IMG/VR virus record: IMGVR_UViG_3300021963_000486
Location: 1-29,432 of that record
Strand: one strand, 5' to 3'
DNA length: 29,432 bases
Source of the DNA: a virus
Shown here: piece after piece, positions 8,872 through 18,447 of the stretch
Numbering within the stretch: the stretch's first letter is position 1
Layout: the number at the start of each line of letters is the position of its first letter
Position numbers and translations under genes: made by a program
Notes under the pieces: model-generated
What the model was told of the DNA's origin: nothing
The model's database searches: none
The model's input: the letters and a program-made list of their open reading frames with translations, nothing else

Positions 8872-9374
8872 TTGAAATGAAATATGTGCCAGAAGATTCT
8901 GAAATTCTATTGACAGAATGTAAAGATTTTGATTTCACAAACCCACCACACGATCCCAAAGAACTAGCGCAAGCATTGCACGATACTATGGTTAAGAGTG
9001 ATGGTTTGGGATTGTCTGCAAATCAAGTTGGCATACCATATAAAGTGTTTGTTATGCGAACTGGTGAGACACCTTTTGCAATGTTTAATCCTAGAATCGT
9101 TGATGTTTCCGAGAAAGAGATTTCAATGAAAGAAGGTTGCTTAAGTTTTCCTTTACTATACTTAAATGTCAAACGTCCAGATGCCGTTCGTGTTAGATAT
9201 CAAAATGAGTATGGAGAAACAAATACGGAAAGATTTATTGGCATGACTGCCAGAATTGCATTGCATGAACTTGACCACATGTTTGGAAAAGTGTATACTC
9301 AAAAGGCATCGACATTTGAAACACAACGTGCGTTACGTAAGCGTATGATTTTAAAACGTAAGGTAAAAAAATGA
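8868..9374 (+). CDS. def: Peptide deformylase
   Basis: 168 residues, usual for the family. All three metal/catalytic motifs are intact: motif 1 GLGLSANQ (46-53), motif 2 EGCLS (89-93, Cys metal ligand) and motif 3 HELDH (133-137, two His ligands and the catalytic Glu). The enzyme removes the formyl group from nascent protein N termini. Phage deformylases are known in T4-like cyanophages and are usually shorter at the C terminus than bacterial ones. Here a basic C-terminal tail (RALRKRMILKRKVKK) is retained. It is ATGA-coupled to both gene 46 and the next gene. Confidence 0.95.
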   Translation: MIEMKYVPEDSEILLTECKDFDFTNPPHDPKELAQALHDTMVKSDGLGLSANQVGIPYKVFVMRTGETPFAMFNPRIVDVSEKEISMKEGCLSFPLLYLNVKRPDAVRVRYQNEYGETNTERFIGMTARIALHELDHMFGKVYTQKASTFETQRALRKRMILKRKVKK

Positions 9375-10471
9375 AACCTTGGCAACACGGATATGACATA
9401 GACTATCTTAAAGGACTTGAAGCACAGTATGCAGACTACAATGCATATACGTTATCTCCTTTTGCGAAGTATAAGAAGAACAATATTGCAGAGTCTTTGA
9501 AAAAAGGAACTCTTGTTTTGCTTGGTGACGCAATGATTGACGTAACAGTAAACAAAGTCGCATCAGACATTACAATGCATGGTGATACAGTTATCGCAAC
9601 CAAAGTAAAGGGTGACGTATCGATTGGAAAACTTTCGGGTAACATCAATACGATCAAACAACAAATTTCCGTATTGTCGGGAAATAATTTTTGGTTGACT
9701 GTATGGGCAGAAAACAAAGCACATTGTGCATTGGCTGAGGAGTTAGGTTTCTGCTATGTTGGTCCTAAGATTACAACATATGGAGAAGTACATGCAATTT
9801 ACTTTAAGAGTAACAGTCCTATTCCACGTTCATTCCCTAAAGTAGAATCAACAGAATATCTAAGCATTAAGAAGATTGGTGCAATCACGCCAGACTTTAT
9901 CAAATCTGTTTCTGCTAAGTTAGCAACATTGCCTGCATTTACAAATCACTATAGTAACTACAACAAAGACAGAGCATGGTCTGCATTGTCATTACGTGGT
10001 TATCGTCCAGAATCAGATTTCATTACAAAGCCTTCTGAGATGAGTGATGACTGGAAAGAAAAAAACAAAGATGTAAAATTTGAATTGCAAGACACACCAC
10101 TCTATGATATGTTTCCTGAAGTGCGTGAGTTGTTGAGTAAATATAAAGAAGTGCATCGTGTTCGTTTCATGCAATTGAAACCTGGCGGTGGAGAACTTGA
10201 ACGACACACAGATCAAGTTGATAAAGACTCTGGTGGGTCTAAAGGCAAACTTGCTAGACTACACATACCAATCATTACTAATCCAAACATGATTTTTACT
10301 GTGTGGGACACTAAAGGTAATCCACAAAAGGTACATATGAATATTGGAGACTTGTGGTTCTTAGATACACGCAAGCCACATCAAGCCATTAACAACGGAA
10401 CAGATAATAGAATTCACTTAGTCATAGACGCAATTTCTGAAGGAGAACTGTATGAGTCGCTTGTATCCTGA
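9371..10471 (+). CDS. Two-domain protein: GNAT-like N-terminal region and C-terminal 2OG-Fe(II) oxygenase
   Basis: 366 residues. The C-terminal third has the facial triad and cosubstrate Arg of a 2-oxoglutarate/iron oxygenase: H279-T-D281, H337 (in RKPHQAINN) and R347, within a layout like the aspartyl/asparaginyl beta-hydroxylase group (ARLHIPI, then MNIGDLWFLDTRKPH). The N-terminal half, ending FWLTVWAENKAHCALAEELGFCYVG (about 107-131), resembles the end of a GNAT acetyltransferase fold, where an Asn precedes a helix and a LGF strand. That assignment is weak. Substrate is unknown. It is coupled by ATGA to deformylase and overlaps the PLP enzyme gene by 20 bases, so it probably acts with that enzyme. 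Confidence 0.68.
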   Translation: MKPWQHGYDIDYLKGLEAQYADYNAYTLSPFAKYKKNNIAESLKKGTLVLLGDAMIDVTVNKVASDITMHGDTVIATKVKGDVSIGKLSGNINTIKQQISVLSGNNFWLTVWAENKAHCALAEELGFCYVGPKITTYGEVHAIYFKSNSPIPRSFPKVESTEYLSIKKIGAITPDFIKSVSAKLATLPAFTNHYSNYNKDRAWSALSLRGYRPESDFITKPSEMSDDWKEKNKDVKFELQDTPLYDMFPEVRELLSKYKEVHRVRFMQLKPGGGELERHTDQVDKDSGGSKGKLARLHIPIITNPNMIFTVWDTKGNPQKVHMNIGDLWFLDTRKPHQAINNGTDNRIHLVIDAISEGELYESLVS

Positions 10472-11216
10472 AGACATTTCTGATATAATTAAAGATTGGA
10501 AAGACCCAAACCCCGCACCGATAGTTGAGATGCACAATGGCTTTCATGTTGTGCGTGATGACTTGTTAGAGTATGGAAGTAAAACCCGATTCATTGACCA
10601 TCTAGTAAAGACTACTCCATGTGATGAATGGGTCTTTGGTGGTGCAAACAAAGTTGGTTGGGGTCCAATCTCTTTAACATACGTGTGTAATCTCTATGGG
10701 AAAAAAGCAACGTTCTTCATGGCTAAACGCAAAGAGCCTACATGGCATCAGCAAAGAGTGCTTGACCTTGGCGGCACTATTCATTGGGTTGACAATGGTA
10801 TGCTTACTGTGACAAAAGCAAGAGCAAGACGATATCAAGAAGAAGATGTAAAGCATAGACAATGCTTACCTTTGGGATTAGAACATCCATCTGTGCTTGC
10901 ATCAATTGTTAAAGTCGCAAGAGATTTAGAGATCAAGCCAACAGAGATTTGGACCGTTGCATCAAGTGGAACATTGAATCGTGGATTGCAATTAGCATTT
11001 CCTGATGTGCCTGCATATGCAGTAGAGATTGGACACAAGATGAGTGACTACGAAAAGGGTCGTGCTGTGACAATGCGTTCACCATATAAGTATGACCAAG
11101 CAGTAGAAGAGGATCAAGCGCCTCCATATCCATCTGAGAAATACTACGATGCTAAACTTTGGCAGTTTGTAGTGAGTAGCGGGAAACCAGGCGCACTAAT
11201 CTGGAATGTAGCGTAA
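10452..11216 (+). CDS. PLP-dependent enzyme, fold type II (ACC deaminase/D-cysteine desulfhydrase-like)
   Basis: 254 residues, clearly shorter than bacterial relatives (roughly 320-340). The PLP lysine is probably in RDDLLEYGSKTRFIDHLV, which matches the family pattern RDD...GGNKxRKL. A cofactor phosphate loop candidate is VASSGTLNRGLQLAFP. Other family-like parts are the QQRVLDLGGTIHWVDNG strand-helix and a C-terminal LIWNVA strand. Enzymes of this group catalyse elimination or deamination on small amino acids; the substrate cannot be read from sequence. AGGAG at 10440-10444 serves the start, inside the previous gene. Because it follows an oxygenase, it could process a hydroxylated amino acid, but this is inference. 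Confidence 0.68.
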   Translation: MSRLYPEDISDIIKDWKDPNPAPIVEMHNGFHVVRDDLLEYGSKTRFIDHLVKTTPCDEWVFGGANKVGWGPISLTYVCNLYGKKATFFMAKRKEPTWHQQRVLDLGGTIHWVDNGMLTVTKARARRYQEEDVKHRQCLPLGLEHPSVLASIVKVARDLEIKPTEIWTVASSGTLNRGLQLAFPDVPAYAVEIGHKMSDYEKGRAVTMRSPYKYDQAVEEDQAPPYPSEKYYDAKLWQFVVSSGKPGALIWNVA

Positions 11217-11239: not shown

Positions 11240-11485
11240 ATGAGTACAGAAGAAGATAAAGTTAAACACTCTCGCAGACTTCTACAAAAAGAAAGTCACA
11301 TTAAACGTCAAGTAAAAATTGCAAAAGCATATAACATACCTGTAGATGAACCTCATACGTTAGCAAAACATTCAGCACTCACTTGCGGTAATCCAGATTG
11401 TGTCATGTGTGCAAACCCAAGAAAAGTATTTAAAGAAAAAACAATTCAAGAAAAACGATTCGATCAAAAACGACTTATAGAATGA
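11240..11485 (+). CDS. Small Cys-motif protein, probably zinc-binding
   Basis: 81 residues, basic. The motif HSALTCGNPDCVMCANPRK (about 45-63) holds three Cys spaced C-x4-C-x2-C plus a His, followed by a charged helix KEKTIQEKRFDQKR. Similar HS...CGNPxCxMCxNPRK proteins occur in T4-like phages and in bacteria as hypothetical proteins. No function is established that I can name. A good AAGGAG precedes the start and the stop overlaps the dCMP deaminase start (ATGA). Confidence 0.7.
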   Translation: MSTEEDKVKHSRRLLQKESHIKRQVKIAKAYNIPVDEPHTLAKHSALTCGNPDCVMCANPRKVFKEKTIQEKRFDQKRLIE

Positions 11486-11916
11486 TTAAAGAAAAATATC
11501 TAGGCGCATACATGAAGACTGCAAGAGTCTTTGCAGAATTGAGTAGCGCAAAACGTAAGCATGTTGGTGCGGTTGTTGTTAAAGATGACCGCATCATTTC
11601 CATAGGGTACAATGGTATGCCGAGTGGATGGGATAACAACTGTGAACAAGTTGTTGGACACACCCACGAAGGTCCTGTACTCAAAACAAAAGCTGAAGTT
11701 CTCCATGCAGAATCTAATGCAATAGCAAAACTAGCTAAGTCTACCGAGAGTGGTGATGGTGCAAGTATGTTTATAACTTGCGCTCCATGCATAGATTGTG
11801 CTAAAATGATATTTCAAAGCGGTATCAAAGAAGTATTTTACGGTGAAGATTACCGTGATGATGATGGTATTCGTTTCCTAAATAAATGCGGAATAACTGT
11901 AAAACAAATAACATGA
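11482..11916 (+). CDS. cd: dCMP deaminase
   Basis: 144 residues. The zinc site is complete: HAESNAIAK with H75 and the proton-shuttle E77, and CAPCIDC with C103 and C106. The GYNGMPSGWDNNC stretch (42-54) is characteristic of dCMP deaminases. It converts dCMP to dUMP, feeding thymidylate synthesis; this suits an AT-rich phage. T4 has the homologous gene cd. The gene is coupled by ATGA overlaps to the Cys-motif protein before it and to the methyltransferase after it. Confidence 0.93.
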   Translation: MIKEKYLGAYMKTARVFAELSSAKRKHVGAVVVKDDRIISIGYNGMPSGWDNNCEQVVGHTHEGPVLKTKAEVLHAESNAIAKLAKSTESGDGASMFITCAPCIDCAKMIFQSGIKEVFYGEDYRDDDGIRFLNKCGITVKQIT

Positions 11917-13487
11917 CAAAACATTTTTATGAACGTAATGATTGGTTACTGAACCACGAAACGAACAAGACATTTGAAGAAGTGCAATGGATGACTGAAG
12001 ACGAATTTCGTCAATGGTTTATTGATTTGCGTAAAGCAGTTGTACACTCATGGGACACTATGGGTCAGCCACCTAGAGTTGGTTGGGATGAAAGTGCAAT
12101 TAAAAAACAATTCAAAGAGATGTATGGATTTCCAGTACATGAGTTTGAACATGCAGATGAACTAACAGGCGAAAGAGATGTTGTTCGAAATACTAGTGTA
12201 GTTGGCAATGCGGCTAATCAATGGTTTCCGACCATGATGAAGACACGCATCAATTACACAAAGAATGATGATGGGCTTTCAATCTATGACCACTTTCTGA
12301 AAGATGAATTGCTTGAGAAGACATTGAAGTATTCTAAGCGACACTTCAAGCGTGATTCATTCTATGCGTATTCAAACACAATCAAAGTCAATGAAGTTGT
12401 GACAATTGGTTCATACAATGTTAAATTTAAGAATGGCAATGACTTTGTTCATTGGTTCGAAGAAAACAATATTAGAGAATATGGATATGACTATTGGGTA
12501 GAGAGTCGTGATGATGACGAAGAGTATACTGGATACAACGAAGAACTCAAAGGCGCAAAGTACCTTGAAGTAACACAAGATATTCTAGAAACTCTTCCGA
12601 GTAAATGCACAATGAATATCAAATCGCATGACCAGAAGAAATATCGTTTGCGTATGTACAAGTACGGACAGAAGATTTTTCCTGTTGGCTTAAAAGCATT
12701 TCGAGTATCGTGGTGCCAATATGCTGTTAACTTTCCACCATTGACTGCAAAATATCTTTATGAAAAATTTACTCGACACGTTAAGAACCAAGACAGAATT
12801 GTTGTTTACGATCCCTCTTCTGGTTGGGGTGGGCGTATTTTGGGTGCTATGGCTTCTCGCACTTCTCTTCCTTTACACTATGTGGGTACTGATCCTAATA
12901 CCGATCACACTATTGATGGCGATGGTGGCACTACTAGTACTAAATATGCCGACTTGGCTAATTTCTATAACTCCGCAAAGAACGAAGGAGTTTTGTTTGA
13001 ACAGTCAAACACTTATGAAGTTTTTCAACTTGGTTCAGAAGTTATCAGAGATGATAGTTCGTTCCAAACGTACAAGGGCATAGTAGATATGGTGTTCACT
13101 AGCCCTCCTTACTTTGCTAAGGAAGCGTATAGTGAAGACCCAACGCAATCGTATAAAAAGTTTACTGGCTATGATGCATGGCGTGAAGGCTTCTTACGTC
13201 CAACGCTAGAGACTGCTGTTGAGTATTTGCGTAATGACAGATACTTACTTTGGAATATTGCTGATGCTAAGTTTGGTGCTGACATGTTGCCACTTGAAAA
13301 AGATAGCAAAGACATTTTGGAATCACTCGGTATGCAATTCAAAGGTGTCGTTAAGATGGCACTAGCACAAATGCCAGGCGGCAATCGCATCGACCCTGAT
13401 ACTGGTTTACCTAAAGCAAAGAATTTTTGCAAGGTGAACGGGATGTGGTTGAAGTATGAACCAATTTTTGTTTTTTATAAGCCGTGA
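11913..13487 (+). CDS. DNA methyltransferase (N6-adenine or N4-cytosine type)
   Basis: 524 residues from the ATG that overlaps the deaminase stop. The AdoMet-binding motif I is DPSSGWGGRILGAMAS (about 300-315), followed by YVGTDPN (motif II region), and the catalytic motif IV is TSPPYF (about 396-401), so the order is I then IV. SPPY fits amino-methyltransferases of the N4C/N6A class. The first 290 residues form a large N-terminal region of unknown fold, possibly for target recognition. It probably modifies phage DNA. The GTG start of the following candidate nuclease overlaps its TGA stop, making a modification/cleavage pair likely. Target base and site cannot be deduced. Confidence 0.85.
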   Translation: MTKHFYERNDWLLNHETNKTFEEVQWMTEDEFRQWFIDLRKAVVHSWDTMGQPPRVGWDESAIKKQFKEMYGFPVHEFEHADELTGERDVVRNTSVVGNAANQWFPTMMKTRINYTKNDDGLSIYDHFLKDELLEKTLKYSKRHFKRDSFYAYSNTIKVNEVVTIGSYNVKFKNGNDFVHWFEENNIREYGYDYWVESRDDDEEYTGYNEELKGAKYLEVTQDILETLPSKCTMNIKSHDQKKYRLRMYKYGQKIFPVGLKAFRVSWCQYAVNFPPLTAKYLYEKFTRHVKNQDRIVVYDPSSGWGGRILGAMASRTSLPLHYVGTDPNTDHTIDGDGGTTSTKYADLANFYNSAKNEGVLFEQSNTYEVFQLGSEVIRDDSSFQTYKGIVDMVFTSPPYFAKEAYSEDPTQSYKKFTGYDAWREGFLRPTLETAVEYLRNDRYLLWNIADAKFGADMLPLEKDSKDILESLGMQFKGVVKMALAQMPGGNRIDPDTGLPKAKNFCKVNGMWLKYEPIFVFYKP

Positions 13488-14206
13488 GTTATTATCTGAC
13501 ACCGATGACGGTGGATGAAATTCAAACTATAATTGGACCAACATTTGCATCATCGTTTCAGTCTGAAATGGATTTAATATTTAATCCACTAAGAAAACAT
13601 TTAGAAAAGGGTAGACCATTATCCTTAGGAAAAGAAATTTGGGAATACGCAGTTAGTGATAGCATCATCAATGCAAGTTGGTGTGGTGCTGGACATAATA
13701 TTATTGATGTTAAGATTAATAATGACATTGGTATCGATGTTAAAAGTGTCAGCATGGATAAAAATGCATCAAAAACTACCGAATCAAGTATGTTTCAGAC
13801 ATTTAAAGATGAAACAAAAAAACACTTCAATGAAAACAATAAGGAAAGTTTGTGGAATCTTTTTGTTGAAGGTTGGTTTGAAAAAACAAAATCTATTAAA
13901 AACTATTATCTAATGGTAATCATTAGAGAAAAGGAAACTTTAGATTGTTCGTTATGTTGTTTTAAAGTGAACGATATTCTATTGAAATATTCTCAAAATT
14001 TGTGTAACCTTGATGGTAAGACAATGAAAATTGATGGTATAGTCAATCAAGATTATGCCGATGTTTTAGTGTACAGTAGTAAGACTAGACTTGAAATAAA
14101 ATTTAAAAAAAAATTATGGGAATCAAAAATTTATTCCATGCAAATTTATAAAAATTCTTGGATAGAAAGAAGAAATTTAGTAAATTTTTTTGTAGAGTCT
14201 TTATAA
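13484..14206 (+). CDS. Candidate PD-(D/E)xK endonuclease paired with the methyltransferase
   Basis: 240 residues from a GTG whose last two bases begin the upstream TGA stop (GTGA). Residues 68-89 contain GAGHNIIDVKINN and GIDVKSV. D75 followed ten residues later by D85-V86-K87 gives the D...D-x-K arrangement of PD-(D/E)xK nucleases, and the GxGHxxxD...(E/D)VKS context recalls restriction endonucleases. E51 in a preceding helix could complete the site. A C-terminal basic region (RLEIKFKKKLWESK) may bind DNA. The gene is visibly richer in A and T than its neighbours, suggesting recent acquisition. I cannot name a specific family; a structural comparison would settle the fold. Confidence 0.55.
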   Translation: MSYYLTPMTVDEIQTIIGPTFASSFQSEMDLIFNPLRKHLEKGRPLSLGKEIWEYAVSDSIINASWCGAGHNIIDVKINNDIGIDVKSVSMDKNASKTTESSMFQTFKDETKKHFNENNKESLWNLFVEGWFEKTKSIKNYYLMVIIREKETLDCSLCCFKVNDILLKYSQNLCNLDGKTMKIDGIVNQDYADVLVYSSKTRLEIKFKKKLWESKIYSMQIYKNSWIERRNLVNFFVESL

Positions 14207-14217
14207 CTTGTTGATTC

Positions 14218-14257
14218 TAAAGGGTTTTTTACTGTCGTTTTAAGGAAAAGCCCTTTA
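14218..14257 (+). terminator. Weak terminator-like inverted repeat after the nuclease gene
   Basis: TAAAGGG at 14218-14224 pairs with CCCTTTA at 14251-14257, with T-rich and A-rich flanks that can extend the stem imperfectly, and a long loop. It lies between the nuclease stop and the next promoter. The downstream T tract is poor, so termination is only plausible. Confidence 0.4.
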
Positions 14258-14304
14258 TTTCACACAAATATGTTGTTTTGATGCAACACTACATCAAATA
14301 ATCG

Positions 14305-14332
14305 TTGACATTCGTTCCTACTGTGCTATACT
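14305..14332 (+). promoter_or_regulatory. Sigma70-type promoter for the OB-fold-like gene
   Basis: TTGACA at 14305-14310, a 16-base spacer, then TATACT at 14327-14332. Predicted start near 14339 leaves a leader of about 25 bases with GAGGAA before the ATG. Confidence 0.75.
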
Positions 14333-14363: not shown

Positions 14364-14936
14364 ATGTCATACGTTGAACATCCTGCCGCATACGAAGCCG
14401 CTATCAAGCGCAACATCATAAACAATGCCACCAAAACGTTTTACAAAACGTATCCTGATGCCAGCGATATCTTTCAATTCCTTGTTAACAATTCTGAGAG
14501 AAATTCTTTTTACTCAAACCTTCTTGGTGCGTTAAACACCTATGGCAAGTTGACAGAAAAACAAGTTCTTGCTGTACGTAAGTCTATTGCAACAATGGCT
14601 GAACGTAAAGCACAATGGCAAGCACAAGCCGCAGAGAAAAACACAACCCGCACATTCATTGGCACCGAAAAGAAAAAGATTACTGTTACTTTAACAGTTA
14701 AAAAAGCAATTGTAGTTGATCGTCCTAAATTTTACTGGGCTGATTCTGGCACCAGTCTTCTCCGTATATGTGAAGATGCCGATGGCAACGTAATTGTATT
14801 CAGCGGCAATGCAGATTTTCCTGCCGAAGGTGAGACTGCCACTATCACCGCTACAGTAAAAATGCACCGCTACTATAAACAAAATGATATTGAAGTTCCA
14901 CAGACTGTTATCATTCGCCCTAAAAAAATCGCTTGA
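14364..14936 (+). CDS. OB-fold-like nucleic acid-binding protein
   Basis: 190 residues. The N-terminal half is helical (FQFLVNNSERNSFYSNLL, then LTEKQVLAVRKSIATM). The C-terminal half, about 97-187, is beta-rich: KKKITVTLTVKKAI, LLRICEDADGNVIVFSG, GETATITATVKMHRYYK and PQTVIIRPKK. This order matches a widespread phage protein type whose last strands read GTVKxHxxYxGxxQTxLxR and which is thought to adopt an OB fold, though here the YxGxxQT part is altered. A role in single-strand DNA handling is possible but unproven. The gene has its own promoter, and its stop codon lies inside the -35 box of the next one. Confidence 0.5.
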   Translation: MSYVEHPAAYEAAIKRNIINNATKTFYKTYPDASDIFQFLVNNSERNSFYSNLLGALNTYGKLTEKQVLAVRKSIATMAERKAQWQAQAAEKNTTRTFIGTEKKKITVTLTVKKAIVVDRPKFYWADSGTSLLRICEDADGNVIVFSGNADFPAEGETATITATVKMHRYYKQNDIEVPQTVIIRPKKIA

Positions 14937-14967: not shown

Positions 14968-17160
14968 ATGCTTAATACACAAATTTCAAAATCCACTCTA
15001 GCAAAGTTACTTGCTACTGAGAATATTTCGGTAGAATATCGCAAGGTCGAGACTGCATCATTCGATATTGTGAATCGCCGTCTTACTCTTCCAATTATGA
15101 ATGACACCACACCTGAAATGACAGACCTTTTGGTCGGGCATGAAGTGGGTCACGCATTAGACACACCACAATCATACGTTGAATCTGCTAAGGCTGGCGG
15201 TTCTGCATTTTCTACATTCTTGAATGTGGTTGAAGATGCACGTATTGAACGAAAAATCAAAGATAGATATCCAGGTTTGCGTAAGCCTATGTCTATTGCG
15301 TATCGTCAATTTATTGAACGTGATTTCTTTGGCATCAAAGGTAAAGATGTAAATGAAATGTTGTTGATTGACAGAATCAATTTGCATTTTAAACTTGGTG
15401 CAATGGCTAGCATCAAATTCAATGCCGATGAAATGTCTTTTGTCAATGAAATTGAAAAGGCAGATTCGTTTGAGCAAGTGAAAGATATCTCCGAACGTTT
15501 GTATGCTTTCTGCAAAGCAGAATTGGACCAGAAACGTGAGGAGGCAAAACAAGAATTCGAAAAGCGCAAAGAGAATGGCGAATTCGATGACAATGAAGAT
15601 TTTGGTGATGACGGCTTTGGCGATGATGCCGAAGACTATGAAGACAAAAATCCGAATGACTATGATTCTGGCTCTGATTTTGGTGATGATGACTATGAAT
15701 CAGAGGATAACTTTGACAATGGTTACTCCAATACGCCAACATTCGAAGATGCTATGCCTAGTGAGTTGAAGGCATACAATGATGAAGTGAAGTCTGTAAC
15801 CGATGAACGGTTGCAAAATTCATTGAAGAGTCTTGCCGAGACAAAAGAAATTTATGTGGGTAAGATTGCAAAGCAAAATTCTATCAAGCTGAAAAACTAT
15901 ATTGTTTCATATAAAGAATTGAAATTCTTTGATGAGTCTTTGTATGACAATGAAGAATTGGAAGACCAAGACCGTTATGATGCAAGTTTGTTGACTAAGT
16001 TTGAATCGAAGAACAAGAATGCTATTGCGTATCTTGTAAAAGAATTCGAAATGAAAAAGAAAGCGGCTGAGTTGCGCCGTGTGACAGTCTCTGATACTGG
16101 CACACTTGATACCAACAAGTTGCACACTTACAAATTCAATGATGATATCTTCCGCAAGATTGGTTCTGTTGCACAAGGTAAAAATCACGGCATTGTAATG
16201 TTCCTTGACTGGTCTGGTTCTATGATGGACAACATGACTGGTACAATTGAACAGTTGATTACAATGGCTACGTTCTGCCGCAAAGTGAATGTTCCTTTTG
16301 ATGTTTATGCTTTCAGTACTGAATATAAAAAGAGTGGAAATGTGTCAATTGAAAATCGTAGAATTGATATTATTCCAAGTCAATTGCAGATTGATAACTT
16401 TCACCTGTTGAACATTTTGTCTAGCAGTATGAAAAATCAAACGTATCGCAAATTTGCAAATGATTTGCTGAATATTGCTGAAGCATACATGCCTTACAAA
16501 AATTTCCGTAGAAATTATAAAGTAAATTACATCAAAGAAGGTATGGGTCTTGGTGGTACTCCGTTGAATGCGACAATTCAAGTTGCATCTAATGTTGTCA
16601 ATGACTTCCGTAAACGCACTCGGTCTGAAATTGTGAATGTTATCTTTTTGACTGATGGCGAAGATTCTAATACTCTTTGGACCGATAATGAATCAGGACG
16701 TTGCCAGCGTATTGGTCCTTCTGACTTCCGTTCAGTATCTTATATTGAAGATGAAGCGTCTGCCAAAACGTATCGTGTGAATGACAAAGGTGTGACACCT
16801 ACTCTGTTGCAAATTCTTAAGGATCGTACTGGTTGCAATTTGATTGGATTCTATATTCTACCAAAGAGCAAACGTTACTTTCAAAATGCAATGACACGTT
16901 TCAACATGATGATGACGGAAGATGGTTACAAACAATTCCGTAACGAAAAGTTTTTCTCTGTTAATGGATATGGTTACTCTGAGTATTTCTTGATTCCTGG
17001 TGGCGAAGATTTGTCTACCGAAGACGATTCGCTTTCAGATATTCTTGGCGAAAGCAAAGATGTTTCCGCACGTAAGTTGAAAGGTGCATTTTTGAAAATG
17101 AACCAAAACCGTTTGACAAACCGTGTTCTTCTCTCTAAGGTAATCAAGGAAATTGCTTGA
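14968..17160 (+). CDS. CobT-like VWA protein with an N-terminal HExxH metalloprotease-like motif
   Basis: 730 residues. N-terminal GHEVGHALD gives HEVGH at 58-62, followed by FLNVVEDARIERK (about 84-96), the spacing and sequence expected of a zinc metallopeptidase whose third ligand lies in an (N/V)xxEDxR helix. A very acidic low-complexity stretch (about 196-255) follows, as in CobT. The C-terminal von Willebrand A domain has the MIDAS motif DWSGSM (414-419) and LTDGED (about 561-566). In bacteria CobT works with the AAA+ protein CobS, and the next gene encodes a CobS-like ATPase. Phage versions are probably protein-remodelling factors rather than cobalamin enzymes. The start appears leaderless. 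Peptidase activity is inferred from motif only. Confidence 0.82.
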   Translation: MLNTQISKSTLAKLLATENISVEYRKVETASFDIVNRRLTLPIMNDTTPEMTDLLVGHEVGHALDTPQSYVESAKAGGSAFSTFLNVVEDARIERKIKDRYPGLRKPMSIAYRQFIERDFFGIKGKDVNEMLLIDRINLHFKLGAMASIKFNADEMSFVNEIEKADSFEQVKDISERLYAFCKAELDQKREEAKQEFEKRKENGEFDDNEDFGDDGFGDDAEDYEDKNPNDYDSGSDFGDDDYESEDNFDNGYSNTPTFEDAMPSELKAYNDEVKSVTDERLQNSLKSLAETKEIYVGKIAKQNSIKLKNYIVSYKELKFFDESLYDNEELEDQDRYDASLLTKFESKNKNAIAYLVKEFEMKKKAAELRRVTVSDTGTLDTNKLHTYKFNDDIFRKIGSVAQGKNHGIVMFLDWSGSMMDNMTGTIEQLITMATFCRKVNVPFDVYAFSTEYKKSGNVSIENRRIDIIPSQLQIDNFHLLNILSSSMKNQTYRKFANDLLNIAEAYMPYKNFRRNYKVNYIKEGMGLGGTPLNATIQVASNVVNDFRKRTRSEIVNVIFLTDGEDSNTLWTDNESGRCQRIGPSDFRSVSYIEDEASAKTYRVNDKGVTPTLLQILKDRTGCNLIGFYILPKSKRYFQNAMTRFNMMMTEDGYKQFRNEKFFSVNGYGYSEYFLIPGGEDLSTEDDSLSDILGESKDVSARKLKGAFLKMNQNRLTNRVLLSKVIKEIA

Positions 17161-17181
17161 TGTTGTATAAAAACAACACTC

Positions 17182-17210
17182 TTGACTTACCATGAATACT
17201 CTGTTATACT
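17182..17210 (+). promoter_or_regulatory. Sigma70-type promoter for the cobS-like gene
   Basis: TTGACT at 17182-17187, a 17-base spacer and TATACT at 17205-17210. Predicted start near 17217 leaves about 37 bases of leader with GAAAGG before the ATG. A six-base inverted repeat (TGTTGT/ACAACA, 17161-17178) lies just upstream. Confidence 0.75.
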
Positions 17211-17253
17211 ACTAGTATTGAAATTGATTTTTAACTGAAAGGCAAATTATATT

Positions 17254-18447
17254 ATGATTACGCAAAGTGAAAAAGTTGCATTTGTTACCGAAGCCGCAAA
17301 ACGTTTTGGTGAAATTGTAACCCGCCAACAATTGGTGACACTTTCTGAAGAGACTGGCGCAAAACGTCAGTTCTGGCTTGAAGCCGATCAATACCGAGTT
17401 GGTCGTGGCAAGTATCAATTGCCCCTCCAAGAATTTAACGTTAACATGGCTGGACTTGCACTAGTCAAATCCAATCCAGTTCCTTCTATGCCAATCTCCG
17501 AACCTATCATGGCTCCTGTTGCAAAGGCAGTAGCAAAAATGTCTTCAGTTGCACGTATGCAGGAAGGCGCAATTGTTCCTAAAGTGAATCCATTATATGT
17601 TCCTTTTGGATTCTTTGACAACATGAAACGTATTGTTGCATCAAAACGTTTTTATCCGGTATTTGTTTCTGGTCTTTCTGGTAACGGCAAGACTTTCATG
17701 GTCGAACAGGCATGTGCCCAATTGAAAACAGAATGCCTCCGTGTGAATATTTCACCTGAGACTGATGAAGACGATTTGATTGGTGGCTTCCGTTTGATTG
17801 ACGGAGAGACAAAATGGTTTGATGGTCCAGTTGTTCAAGCAATGAAGTCTGGTGCAGTTTTGATTCTCGATGAAATTGACCGTGGTTCAAATAAACTTAT
17901 GTGTCTGCAAGGTGTACTTGAAGGCAAAGGTTTGTTTGTTAAGAAGACTGGTGAATTTGTTGAACCAATGCAAGGCTTCAACGTTATCGCTACAGCAAAC
18001 ACTAAAGGTAAAGGTGATGAGACTGGTCGCTACATGGCCGCTACAATTCTTGATGATGCGTTCCTTGAGCGTTTTCCAATTACTGTAGAGCAAGAGTATG
18101 CCGATGTTAAAGTTGAAATTAAGATTATGAACAAACTGTTCTCAAGTCTTGGTATTGATGACAAAGCATTCGCAGAAAATCTTGTGAAGTGGGCTGATAT
18201 CATCCGTAAGACTTTCGAAGAAGGTGCTATTGATGAATTGATTTCCACTCGCCGCTTGGCACACATTGCCGAAGCATACACTATCTTCAACGATAAGATG
18301 GAAGCAATCAAGTACTGTATCAATCGTTTCGATGCTGAAACAAAGACTGCATTCCTTGACTTGTACAGCAAGATTGATGCTGGTATCGACCCTACCGCAG
18401 AAGTGGAGTCTAAGCCAGATGTAATCACAGAGGAAATTCCTTTCTAA
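17254..18447 (+). CDS. cobS: CobS/MoxR-type AAA+ ATPase
   Basis: 397 residues. An N-terminal region of about 115 residues precedes the ATPase core with Walker A GLSGNGKT (140-147), Walker B LILDEID (203-209), an ISPETDEDDLIGGF segment typical of CobS/MoxR proteins, and a sensor-like ATANTKGKGDETGRY. A DDAFLERF segment follows. MoxR-type ATPases act with VWA-domain partners, and that partner is the preceding gene. CobS homologues are frequent in T4-like cyanophages and relatives, where the true role is not established. The gene has its own promoter and ends in a strong terminator. Confidence 0.9.
   Translation: MITQSEKVAFVTEAAKRFGEIVTRQQLVTLSEETGAKRQFWLEADQYRVGRGKYQLPLQEFNVNMAGLALVKSNPVPSMPISEPIMAPVAKAVAKMSSVARMQEGAIVPKVNPLYVPFGFFDNMKRIVASKRFYPVFVSGLSGNGKTFMVEQACAQLKTECLRVNISPETDEDDLIGGFRLIDGETKWFDGPVVQAMKSGAVLILDEIDRGSNKLMCLQGVLEGKGLFVKKTGEFVEPMQGFNVIATANTKGKGDETGRYMAATILDDAFLERFPITVEQEYADVKVEIKIMNKLFSSLGIDDKAFAENLVKWADIIRKTFEEGAIDELISTRRLAHIAEAYTIFNDKMEAIKYCINRFDAETKTAFLDLYSKIDAGIDPTAEVESKPDVITEEIPF

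What the first reader, a model, noticed from the sequence alone, without database searches (positions are those of the whole stretch)
11913..14206. Translationally fused methyltransferase and candidate restriction-type nuclease in a T4-like genome
The nuclease candidate starts with GTG inside the stop of the methyltransferase (GTGA), and has D75...D85-V-K87 in a context like restriction enzymes. A phage-borne modification/cleavage pair would let the virus mark its own DNA and cut unmarked host or rival-phage DNA, a simple counterpart to T4's modified bases plus denA/denB. The nuclease gene is more AT-rich than its neighbours, hinting at recent capture beside an older methyltransferase.
Basis: partly seen in the sequence, partly recalled or inferred. 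Interest (0 to 1): 0.85.

Follow-up and report, generated by a model that had tools for sequence, protein, structure and literature searches.

The report
Roaming restriction-type nuclease in T4-like phages
A T4-like virus of bacteria carries a DNA-cutting enzyme of the restriction-enzyme type, tucked exactly behind a DNA-marking enzyme; the cutter turns out to be a roaming gene found in dozens of related viruses, often beside other DNA-marking genes, so it may help viruses destroy unmarked rival or host DNA, although this is not yet proven.

Summary
A methyltransferase (11913-13487) and a 240-aa protein (13484-14206, here NUC) overlap by GTGA in a T4-like phage; they are translationally coupled, not fused. 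NUC matches no family library, PDB sequence, isolate phage or bacterial genome tested. AlphaFold (pLDDT 89) and structural alignment place it with type II restriction endonucleases (ThaI, NhoI, EcoRV; Z 6-7.5), and E51, D75, D85 and K87 are present in 47 of 47 relatives.

The pair reading is only partly right. The methyltransferase is a widespread, usually solitary phage gene. NUC is a sporadic mobile ORF in about 60 IMG/VR loci, and its tree needs at least 15 changes of genomic context. It was inserted exactly between the methyltransferase's last codon and its stop and terminator. Sister phages have the site empty, or hold an XhoI-like endonuclease, another nuclease candidate or oxygenases. 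One relative lost the methyltransferase, keeping a scar, and kept NUC beside a TET-associated glycosyltransferase. Elsewhere NUC follows FolE near QueE/QueD, but enrichment over background was not shown.

Best explanation: a mobile restriction-type nuclease that cuts DNA lacking the phage's mark. The main rival is a free-standing homing endonuclease. Substrate, specificity and protection are untested.

The parts
11482..11916 (+). dCMP deaminase gene, upstream neighbour; its stop overlaps the methyltransferase start (ATGA)
   Evidence: PHROG 174 dCMP deaminase 4.1e-50, Pfam PF00383 5.4e-22
11913..13487 (+). Methyltransferase P0001, 524 aa, motif I-like DPSSGWGG (300-307) and motif IV TSPPYF (396-401); amino-methyltransferase type, probably DNA N4-cytosine or N6-adenine
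   Evidence: Pfam N6_N4_Mtase in 18/18 family members, best 1.6e-6, below the curated cut-off for the window protein; PADLOC MTase_II in 18/18, best 1.3e-10; PHROG DNA methyltransferase 4.5e-6; AF2 pLDDT 80.9 class I methyltransferase fold, nearest solved folds are tRNA m2G methyltransferases, Z 14-15
13484..13487 (+). GTGA overlap: NUC start codon inside the methyltransferase stop
   Evidence: sequence; -4 overlap in 40/58 NUC loci against 193/767 other gene pairs in the same loci
13484..14206 (+). NUC: PD-(D/E)xK restriction-type nuclease, 240 aa; E51, D75, D85, K87
   Evidence: AF2 pLDDT 88.8, pTM 0.86; VIA-align hits ThaI 3ndh Z 7.5, NhoI 7.3, HinP1I 6.4, EcoRV 6.3, SwaI 6.0; residues invariant in 47/47
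14207..14265 (+). Methyltransferase gene's own terminator-like hairpin, now downstream of NUC; the same sequence follows the methyltransferase stop in NUC-less sisters
   Evidence: junction comparison; RNA hairpin -15.3 kcal/mol, z -3.1
14305..14332 (+). Extended -10 sigma-70-like promoter of the next gene (190 aa, 14364-14936), outside the NUC insertion
   Evidence: TTGACA-16-TATACT with TG, 11 of 12; a consensus match only

Best explanation
NUC is a compact PD-(D/E)xK endonuclease of the type II restriction fold, carried as an expression-neutral, mobile single-gene cassette by T4-like and jumbo phages. It inserts between co-directional genes, often with its start codon overlapping the upstream stop, so it is translated from the resident operon. 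In this phage it landed between a resident, older methyltransferase and that gene's terminator. Most likely it cuts DNA that lacks the phage's own modification (host chromosome, or a co-infecting or superinfecting phage), and the phage's resident modification (here the methyltransferase; in relatives probably a glycosyltransferase or 7-deazaguanine) spares its own DNA. Shown: gene structure, exact insertion, mobility, conserved catalytic residues. Supported by model: the restriction-type fold. Inferred: dimeric Mg2+-dependent cleavage (from the fold family), sequence specificity, and protection by the resident modification.
For: Fold matches almost exclusively type II restriction enzymes, MutH or Hjc-type PD-(D/E)xK nucleases. 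E51, D75, D85 and K87 are invariant in 47 relatives reaching down to about 33% identity, in the order and spacing of PD-(D/E)xK enzymes. Purifying selection. The same slot in sister phages carries an XhoI-family endonuclease (PF04555 3.3e-5; PADLOC REase_II 3.1e-7) and a third nuclease-like ORF. The resident partner is an amino-methyltransferase. L002 lost that methyltransferase but has a TAGT glycosyltransferase (PF20691 4.7e-40) directly before NUC. NUC starts inside or next to the FolE stop, with QueE or QueD nearby, in about 18 distinct proteins, and 7-deazaguanine in phage DNA is known to block restriction enzymes (PMC6884629). Insertion sites share no obvious common target sequence. Precedent: chloroviruses encode adjacent methyltransferase and restriction endonuclease genes and are thought to degrade host DNA with them (PMC7019647).
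Against: NUC is not stably linked to any one modification gene: contexts next to RNase H, gp44 or UvsW-type genes have no modification gene adjacent. QueE is found in 10 of 11 NUC contigs over 100 kb but also in 4 of 6 comparable background contigs, so enrichment is not shown. No TGT/DpdA-type enzyme was detected by PF01702 in any. No palindromic 4-mer is specifically depleted in NUC-bearing phages, which neither supports nor excludes modification-based protection. Sporadic mobility is also what a homing endonuclease would show. Foldseek by itself gave no significant PDB hit (best E 0.08).
Confidence: 0.5

Rival explanations
1. NUC is a free-standing homing endonuclease: a selfish gene that cuts NUC-less relatives near its insertion point and is copied in by recombination, with no role for modification.
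For: Sporadic, phage-only, found at many sites beside conserved replication genes, at least 15 context changes on the tree, exact insertion into empty sites, lower GC than the rest of the genome, a decayed copy in L090 with an internal deletion from residue 29 to about 197. T4's free-standing homing genes sit between conserved genes, and different nucleases can share one target (nrdB is cut by both MobE and Hef; PMC2988022). A PD-(D/E)xK homing enzyme is cited in PMC10448857.
Against: No shared target motif was seen at the insertion points. Compact single-domain restriction-enzyme fold. Insertions are ORF-exact and coupled to the upstream gene rather than intergenic. The same slot also takes an XhoI-family restriction enzyme and oxygenases.
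Confidence: 0.28
2. A true type II restriction-modification pair: NUC and this methyltransferase recognise the same site and act as a unit.
For: Adjacent and translationally coupled in the window, L003 and L004; the methyltransferase belongs with type II amino-methyltransferases.
Against: The methyltransferase is solitary in most relatives and NUC is elsewhere without it; L002 keeps NUC after losing it; XhoI-like enzymes of unrelated sequence occupy the same slot behind a 94-96% identical methyltransferase.
Confidence: 0.1
3. NUC is a general host-DNA-degrading or recombination nuclease (T4 denA/denB-like in role, or Holliday-junction type) with weak or structural specificity.
For: Hjc Holliday-junction resolvases are among the fold matches (Z about 5); several sites lie next to replication and recombination genes.
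Against: The best matches are sequence-specific type II enzymes; a core nucleic-acid enzyme would not be expected to be so sporadic and mobile.
Confidence: 0.1

Closest known systems
Type II restriction endonucleases of the PD-(D/E)xK fold (ThaI 3ndh, NhoI, EcoRV, SwaI, HinP1I)
   Same: Predicted fold and size, E...D...DxK active-site order
   Different: No detectable sequence similarity; phage-only; mobile without a dedicated methyltransferase; specificity and cleavage untested
Chlorovirus restriction-modification pairs (CviJI and similar; PMC7019647)
   Same: Virus-encoded endonuclease beside a methyltransferase; many solitary methyltransferases
   Different: In chloroviruses the endonuclease and methyltransferase genes are described as always adjacent; NUC is mostly not beside a methyltransferase. 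Eukaryotic algal host
Free-standing homing endonucleases of T4-like phages (Seg, Mob, Hef; PMC2988022)
   Same: Sporadic, mobile, placed between conserved genes
   Different: T4's are described as GIY-YIG and HNH and intergenic; NUC is PD-(D/E)xK, ORF-exact and usually overlaps the upstream gene; no shared target seen
XhoI family (PF04555)
   Same: A PF04555-like endonuclease occupies the same post-methyltransferase slot in L007 and L018
   Different: Different family; NUC does not match PF04555
T4 EndoII/EndoIV (denA/denB), from general knowledge
   Same: Proposed logic: destroy DNA lacking the phage's base modification
   Different: Different protein family; not known to me as mobile cassettes

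Membership tests
PD-(D/E)xK nuclease superfamily | E (helix) ... D ... (D/E)xK active site conserved across relatives | tested here: met
   E51, D75, D85, K87 in 47/47; helix 50-60 and strand 82-91 in the model
PD-(D/E)xK nuclease superfamily | Alpha/beta core fold of the superfamily | tested here: met
   VIA-align hits nearly all restriction enzymes, MutH or Hjc, Z 4.3-7.5. Z is under 8, so this is coherent rather than conclusive; Foldseek alone was not significant
Type II restriction endonuclease | Cleaves at a specific short duplex sequence | not testable with these tools
   needs protein
Type II restriction endonuclease | Cognate modification blocks cleavage | not testable with these tools
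   needs methylome and in vitro digestion
Type II restriction-modification system | Endonuclease and methyltransferase genes stably linked | tested here: not met
   linked only in the window, L003 and L004; most other NUC loci lack this methyltransferase nearby and most methyltransferase loci lack NUC; L002 lost it
Free-standing homing endonuclease | Sporadic presence with exact empty sites in relatives | tested here: met
Free-standing homing endonuclease | Conserved long target next to or across the insertion point | tested here: inconclusive
   no shared motif seen by eye across methyltransferase, FolE and RNase H insertion points; a target inside a neighbouring gene is not excluded
Free-standing homing endonuclease | Biased inheritance in mixed infection | not testable with these tools
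   needs phage crosses
DNA amino-methyltransferase (P0001) | SAM-binding motif and (D/N/S)PP(Y/F) motif IV | tested here: met
   invariant D300, P301, S302, G304 and TSPPYF 396-401 across 18 members; N6_N4_Mtase in 18/18
DNA amino-methyltransferase (P0001) | Substrate is DNA | tested here: inconclusive
   sequence families say DNA, closest solved folds are tRNA m2G methyltransferases

The most novel reading that the evidence does not exclude
One mobile nuclease family that uses whatever DNA mark its carrier already makes (amino-methylation, sugar-modified base, or 7-deazaguanine) as its self signal: a restriction enzyme travelling without its own methyltransferase and pairing anew with each resident modification.
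Probability: 0.2. Interest if true: 0.78.

Novelty: new variant of a known kind. Interest (0 to 1): 0.55.

Why it matters
If true, lytic phages trade restriction-type nucleases as plug-in cassettes, using existing DNA modification as the self mark. That offers a route by which phages exclude rivals or dismantle the host, and a possible source of restriction enzymes that travel without a methyltransferase. Even if it proves to be a homing gene, it would be an undescribed PD-(D/E)xK homing family in T4-like phages. The exact junctions and the L002 replacement make the question directly testable.

Tried and rejected
Family and sequence searches of NUC against Pfam, PHROGs, NCBIfam, PADLOC, PDB sequences, INPHARED phages and GTDB genome contigs gave no relative. 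Palindrome avoidance as a clue to specificity: no 4-mer is depleted in NUC-bearing phages relative to NUC-less sisters; CGCG is absent, but from the whole lineage. TGT/DpdA-type base-exchange enzyme (PF01702): none in 26 contigs, so how 7-deazaguanine would enter DNA is open; PMC6884629 discusses DpdA-independent cases. Enrichment of QueE with NUC: 10/11 against 4/6 for contigs over 100 kb, too few to show a difference. 'Translational fusion' rejected: the two proteins are separate. XhoI-like ORF against PDB sequences: no hit. BFVD structural search: two significant hits, one an uncharacterized phage protein and one unnamed. No homing endonuclease appeared among the shown fold matches, which by the tool's own note excludes nothing.

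Full report
OBSERVATION. The window is a 29.4-kb IMG/VR record of a T4-like phage: PHROG matches include the major head protein, UvsW-type helicase, gp46-like SbcC subunit, late sigma factor, sliding clamp, clamp loader and DNA polymerase. Two overlapping genes lie at 11913-13487 (524 aa) and 13484-14206 (240 aa, GTG start), sharing GTGA. They are separate proteins, so the link is translational coupling, not fusion. The second gene, called NUC here, has 28.5% G+C against 39.1% for its partner and 37.1% for the window. It is under purifying selection (dN/dS 0.14-0.17).

WHAT THE NUCLEASE CANDIDATE IS. NUC matches nothing convincingly in Pfam, PHROGs, NCBIfam, PADLOC, PDB sequences, INPHARED phages or GTDB genomes. 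Iterated searches of IMG/VR found 62 loci. In 47 relatives E51, D75, D85 and K87 never vary, nor do K50, W53, E54, Y55, W66, G68-A69-G70, S102, Q105, R148, K200, R202 and E204. The spacing E51 - D75 - D85-x-K87 is that of PD-(D/E)xK enzymes. AlphaFold gives pLDDT 88.8 and pTM 0.86. Foldseek alone finds no significant PDB match, but its top hit is NhoI. VIA-align of Foldseek's candidates puts ThaI (Z 7.5; the name for 3ndh is from general knowledge), NhoI (7.3), Eco15I (6.8), HinP1I (6.4), EcoRV (6.3) and SwaI (6.0) on top, followed by HhaI, DpnI, BglI, MutH, NlaIV, Hjc and HincII. Z below 8 is modest by the tool's own note, but the list is nearly pure for one superfamily and the invariant residues fit it. 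I hold 'PD-(D/E)xK restriction-type nuclease' at about 0.9.

WHAT THE METHYLTRANSFERASE IS. All 18 diverse members match Pfam N6_N4_Mtase (best 1.6e-6; the window protein scores below the curated cut-off) and PADLOC MTase_II (best 1.3e-10). Motif IV is TSPPYF, more usual in N4-cytosine enzymes (general knowledge). The model is a class I methyltransferase, and its nearest solved folds are tRNA m2G methyltransferases (Z 14-15), so DNA as substrate is likely but not shown. Its family gave 269 hits in IMG/VR; among the 80 best examined only two contigs (L003/L019 and L004/L011) carry NUC.

HOW THEY CAME TOGETHER. Sister phages with a 94-95% identical methyltransferase and no NUC show the empty site...AAGCCG TAA CTTGTTGATT. 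In the window the same sequence reads ...AAGCCG TGA GTT...NUC...TTTA TAA CTTGTTGATT. NUC was therefore inserted exactly between the methyltransferase's last sense codon and its stop and terminator-like hairpin (-15.3 kcal/mol, z -3.1). Among 17 contigs of this close group, that slot holds NUC in two, an XhoI-family endonuclease in two (L007; L018 together with a 2OG oxygenase), a third nuclease-like ORF with 2OG oxygenase-type ORFs in L029, oxygenase-like genes alone in three, and nothing or a different downstream region in nine (the L008/L012 ORFs were called oxygenase-like by eye only). In L002, whose NUC is 83% identical, the methyltransferase is gone from the 13.9-kb fragment, but about 30 bases of its 3' end remain upstream of NUC. 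Its place is taken by an HNH gene, a small ORF, a class I methyltransferase and a TAGT glycosyltransferase (PF20691, 4.7e-40).

NUC ELSEWHERE. NUC genes lie after FolE (18 distinct proteins, usually -4 overlap), after an RNase H-type gene downstream of QueE (7), near clamp-loader or UvsW-type genes, and upstream of gp47. FolE, QueE and QueD matches were confirmed by NCBIfam. The tree needs at least 15 context changes. Insertions at FolE and RNase H sites are also close to exact at gene boundaries, many NUC ends carry TTTTAAGGA (stop plus a Shine-Dalgarno-like sequence), and no common target was seen across the site types. The -4 overlap occurs in 40 of 58 NUC loci against 193 of 767 other pairs (p 2.5e-11, though loci are not independent). 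L090 has a decayed NUC beside intact FolE.

MECHANISM. The best-supported reading is a mobile restriction-type nuclease that plugs into resident operons and cuts DNA lacking the carrier's modification. Shown: gene anatomy, exact insertion, mobility, invariant active site. Supported by model: fold. Inferred: cleavage, specificity, protection. Support for the protection idea is the neighbourhood: an amino-methyltransferase here, a TAGT glycosyltransferase in L002, 7-deazaguanine genes in many others. 7-deazaguanine modifications are known to protect phage DNA from restriction enzymes (PMC6884629), and chloroviruses are believed to use their own restriction endonucleases on host DNA (PMC7019647). 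Limits: QueE occurs in 10/11 NUC contigs over 100 kb but also in 4/6 background contigs, so enrichment is not shown; no TGT/DpdA was found; several NUC sites have no modification gene adjacent.

RIVALS. A free-standing homing endonuclease is the serious rival (0.28): sporadic, mobile, beside conserved genes, as in T4 (PMC2988022). Against it are the restriction-enzyme fold, operon-coupled ORF-exact insertion and the lack of a shared target. A dedicated restriction-modification pair (0.1) is weakened because linkage was tested and not met. A general host-DNA or recombination nuclease (0.1) is possible.

VERDICT. The pair interpretation is too strong. This is a new phage-only PD-(D/E)xK family, a new variant of a known kind.

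Noticed in passing
window 1-29432; L005-L018; G002 (L319-L326): CGCG is completely absent from this phage lineage: 0 against about 28 expected in the window and 0 against 141 expected in a 150-kb NUC-less relative, whereas phages with about 80% identical methyltransferase have it at the expected rate (88/94). GGCC, CCGG, GATC and AGCT are also depleted. Likely host restriction pressure or another lineage-wide nuclease.
   Followed up: partly
L007 7572-8165; L018 8207-8797: XhoI-family restriction endonuclease (PF04555, PADLOC REase_II) in the same post-methyltransferase slot in sister T4-like phages.
   Followed up: partly
L029 8811-9398: A third nuclease-like ORF (D...VELK; PADLOC PDC-M62A 1.6e-4) in the same slot, behind two 2OG oxygenase-type genes.
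   Followed up: no
L008 3098-3703; L012 7585-8184; L015 7572-8216; L018 7572-8210: 2OG-Fe(II) oxygenase genes (PF13759 1.2e-9 for L015; L008/L012 by eye) are alternative cargo directly behind the methyltransferase.
   Followed up: no
L002 2377-4972: Replacement of the methyltransferase by HNH, a 125-aa ORF, a class I methyltransferase and a TAGT glycosyltransferase, leaving a short scar of the methyltransferase 3' end.
   Followed up: partly
L090 3993-4160: Decayed NUC with an internal deletion (about residues 29 to 197) behind FolE; the C-terminal YNSKTRVEIK motif is still readable.
   Followed up: partly
L089, L095, L096, L098 and others: T4-like and jumbo phages carry FolE, QueE and QueD genes; no TGT/DpdA (PF01702) was detectable in the 26 contigs searched, so how the base would be used is unclear.
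   Followed up: partly
window 10452-11216: PLP-dependent (threonine dehydratase-like, PHROG 7093 1.7e-29) gene conserved beside an aspartyl/asparaginyl beta-hydroxylase-like gene (9371-10471) in these phages.
   Followed up: no
window 14968-18447: Two long adjacent genes (730 and 397 aa) that look by eye like a VWA-domain protein and a MoxR-type AAA ATPase, conserved downstream of the slot.
   Followed up: no
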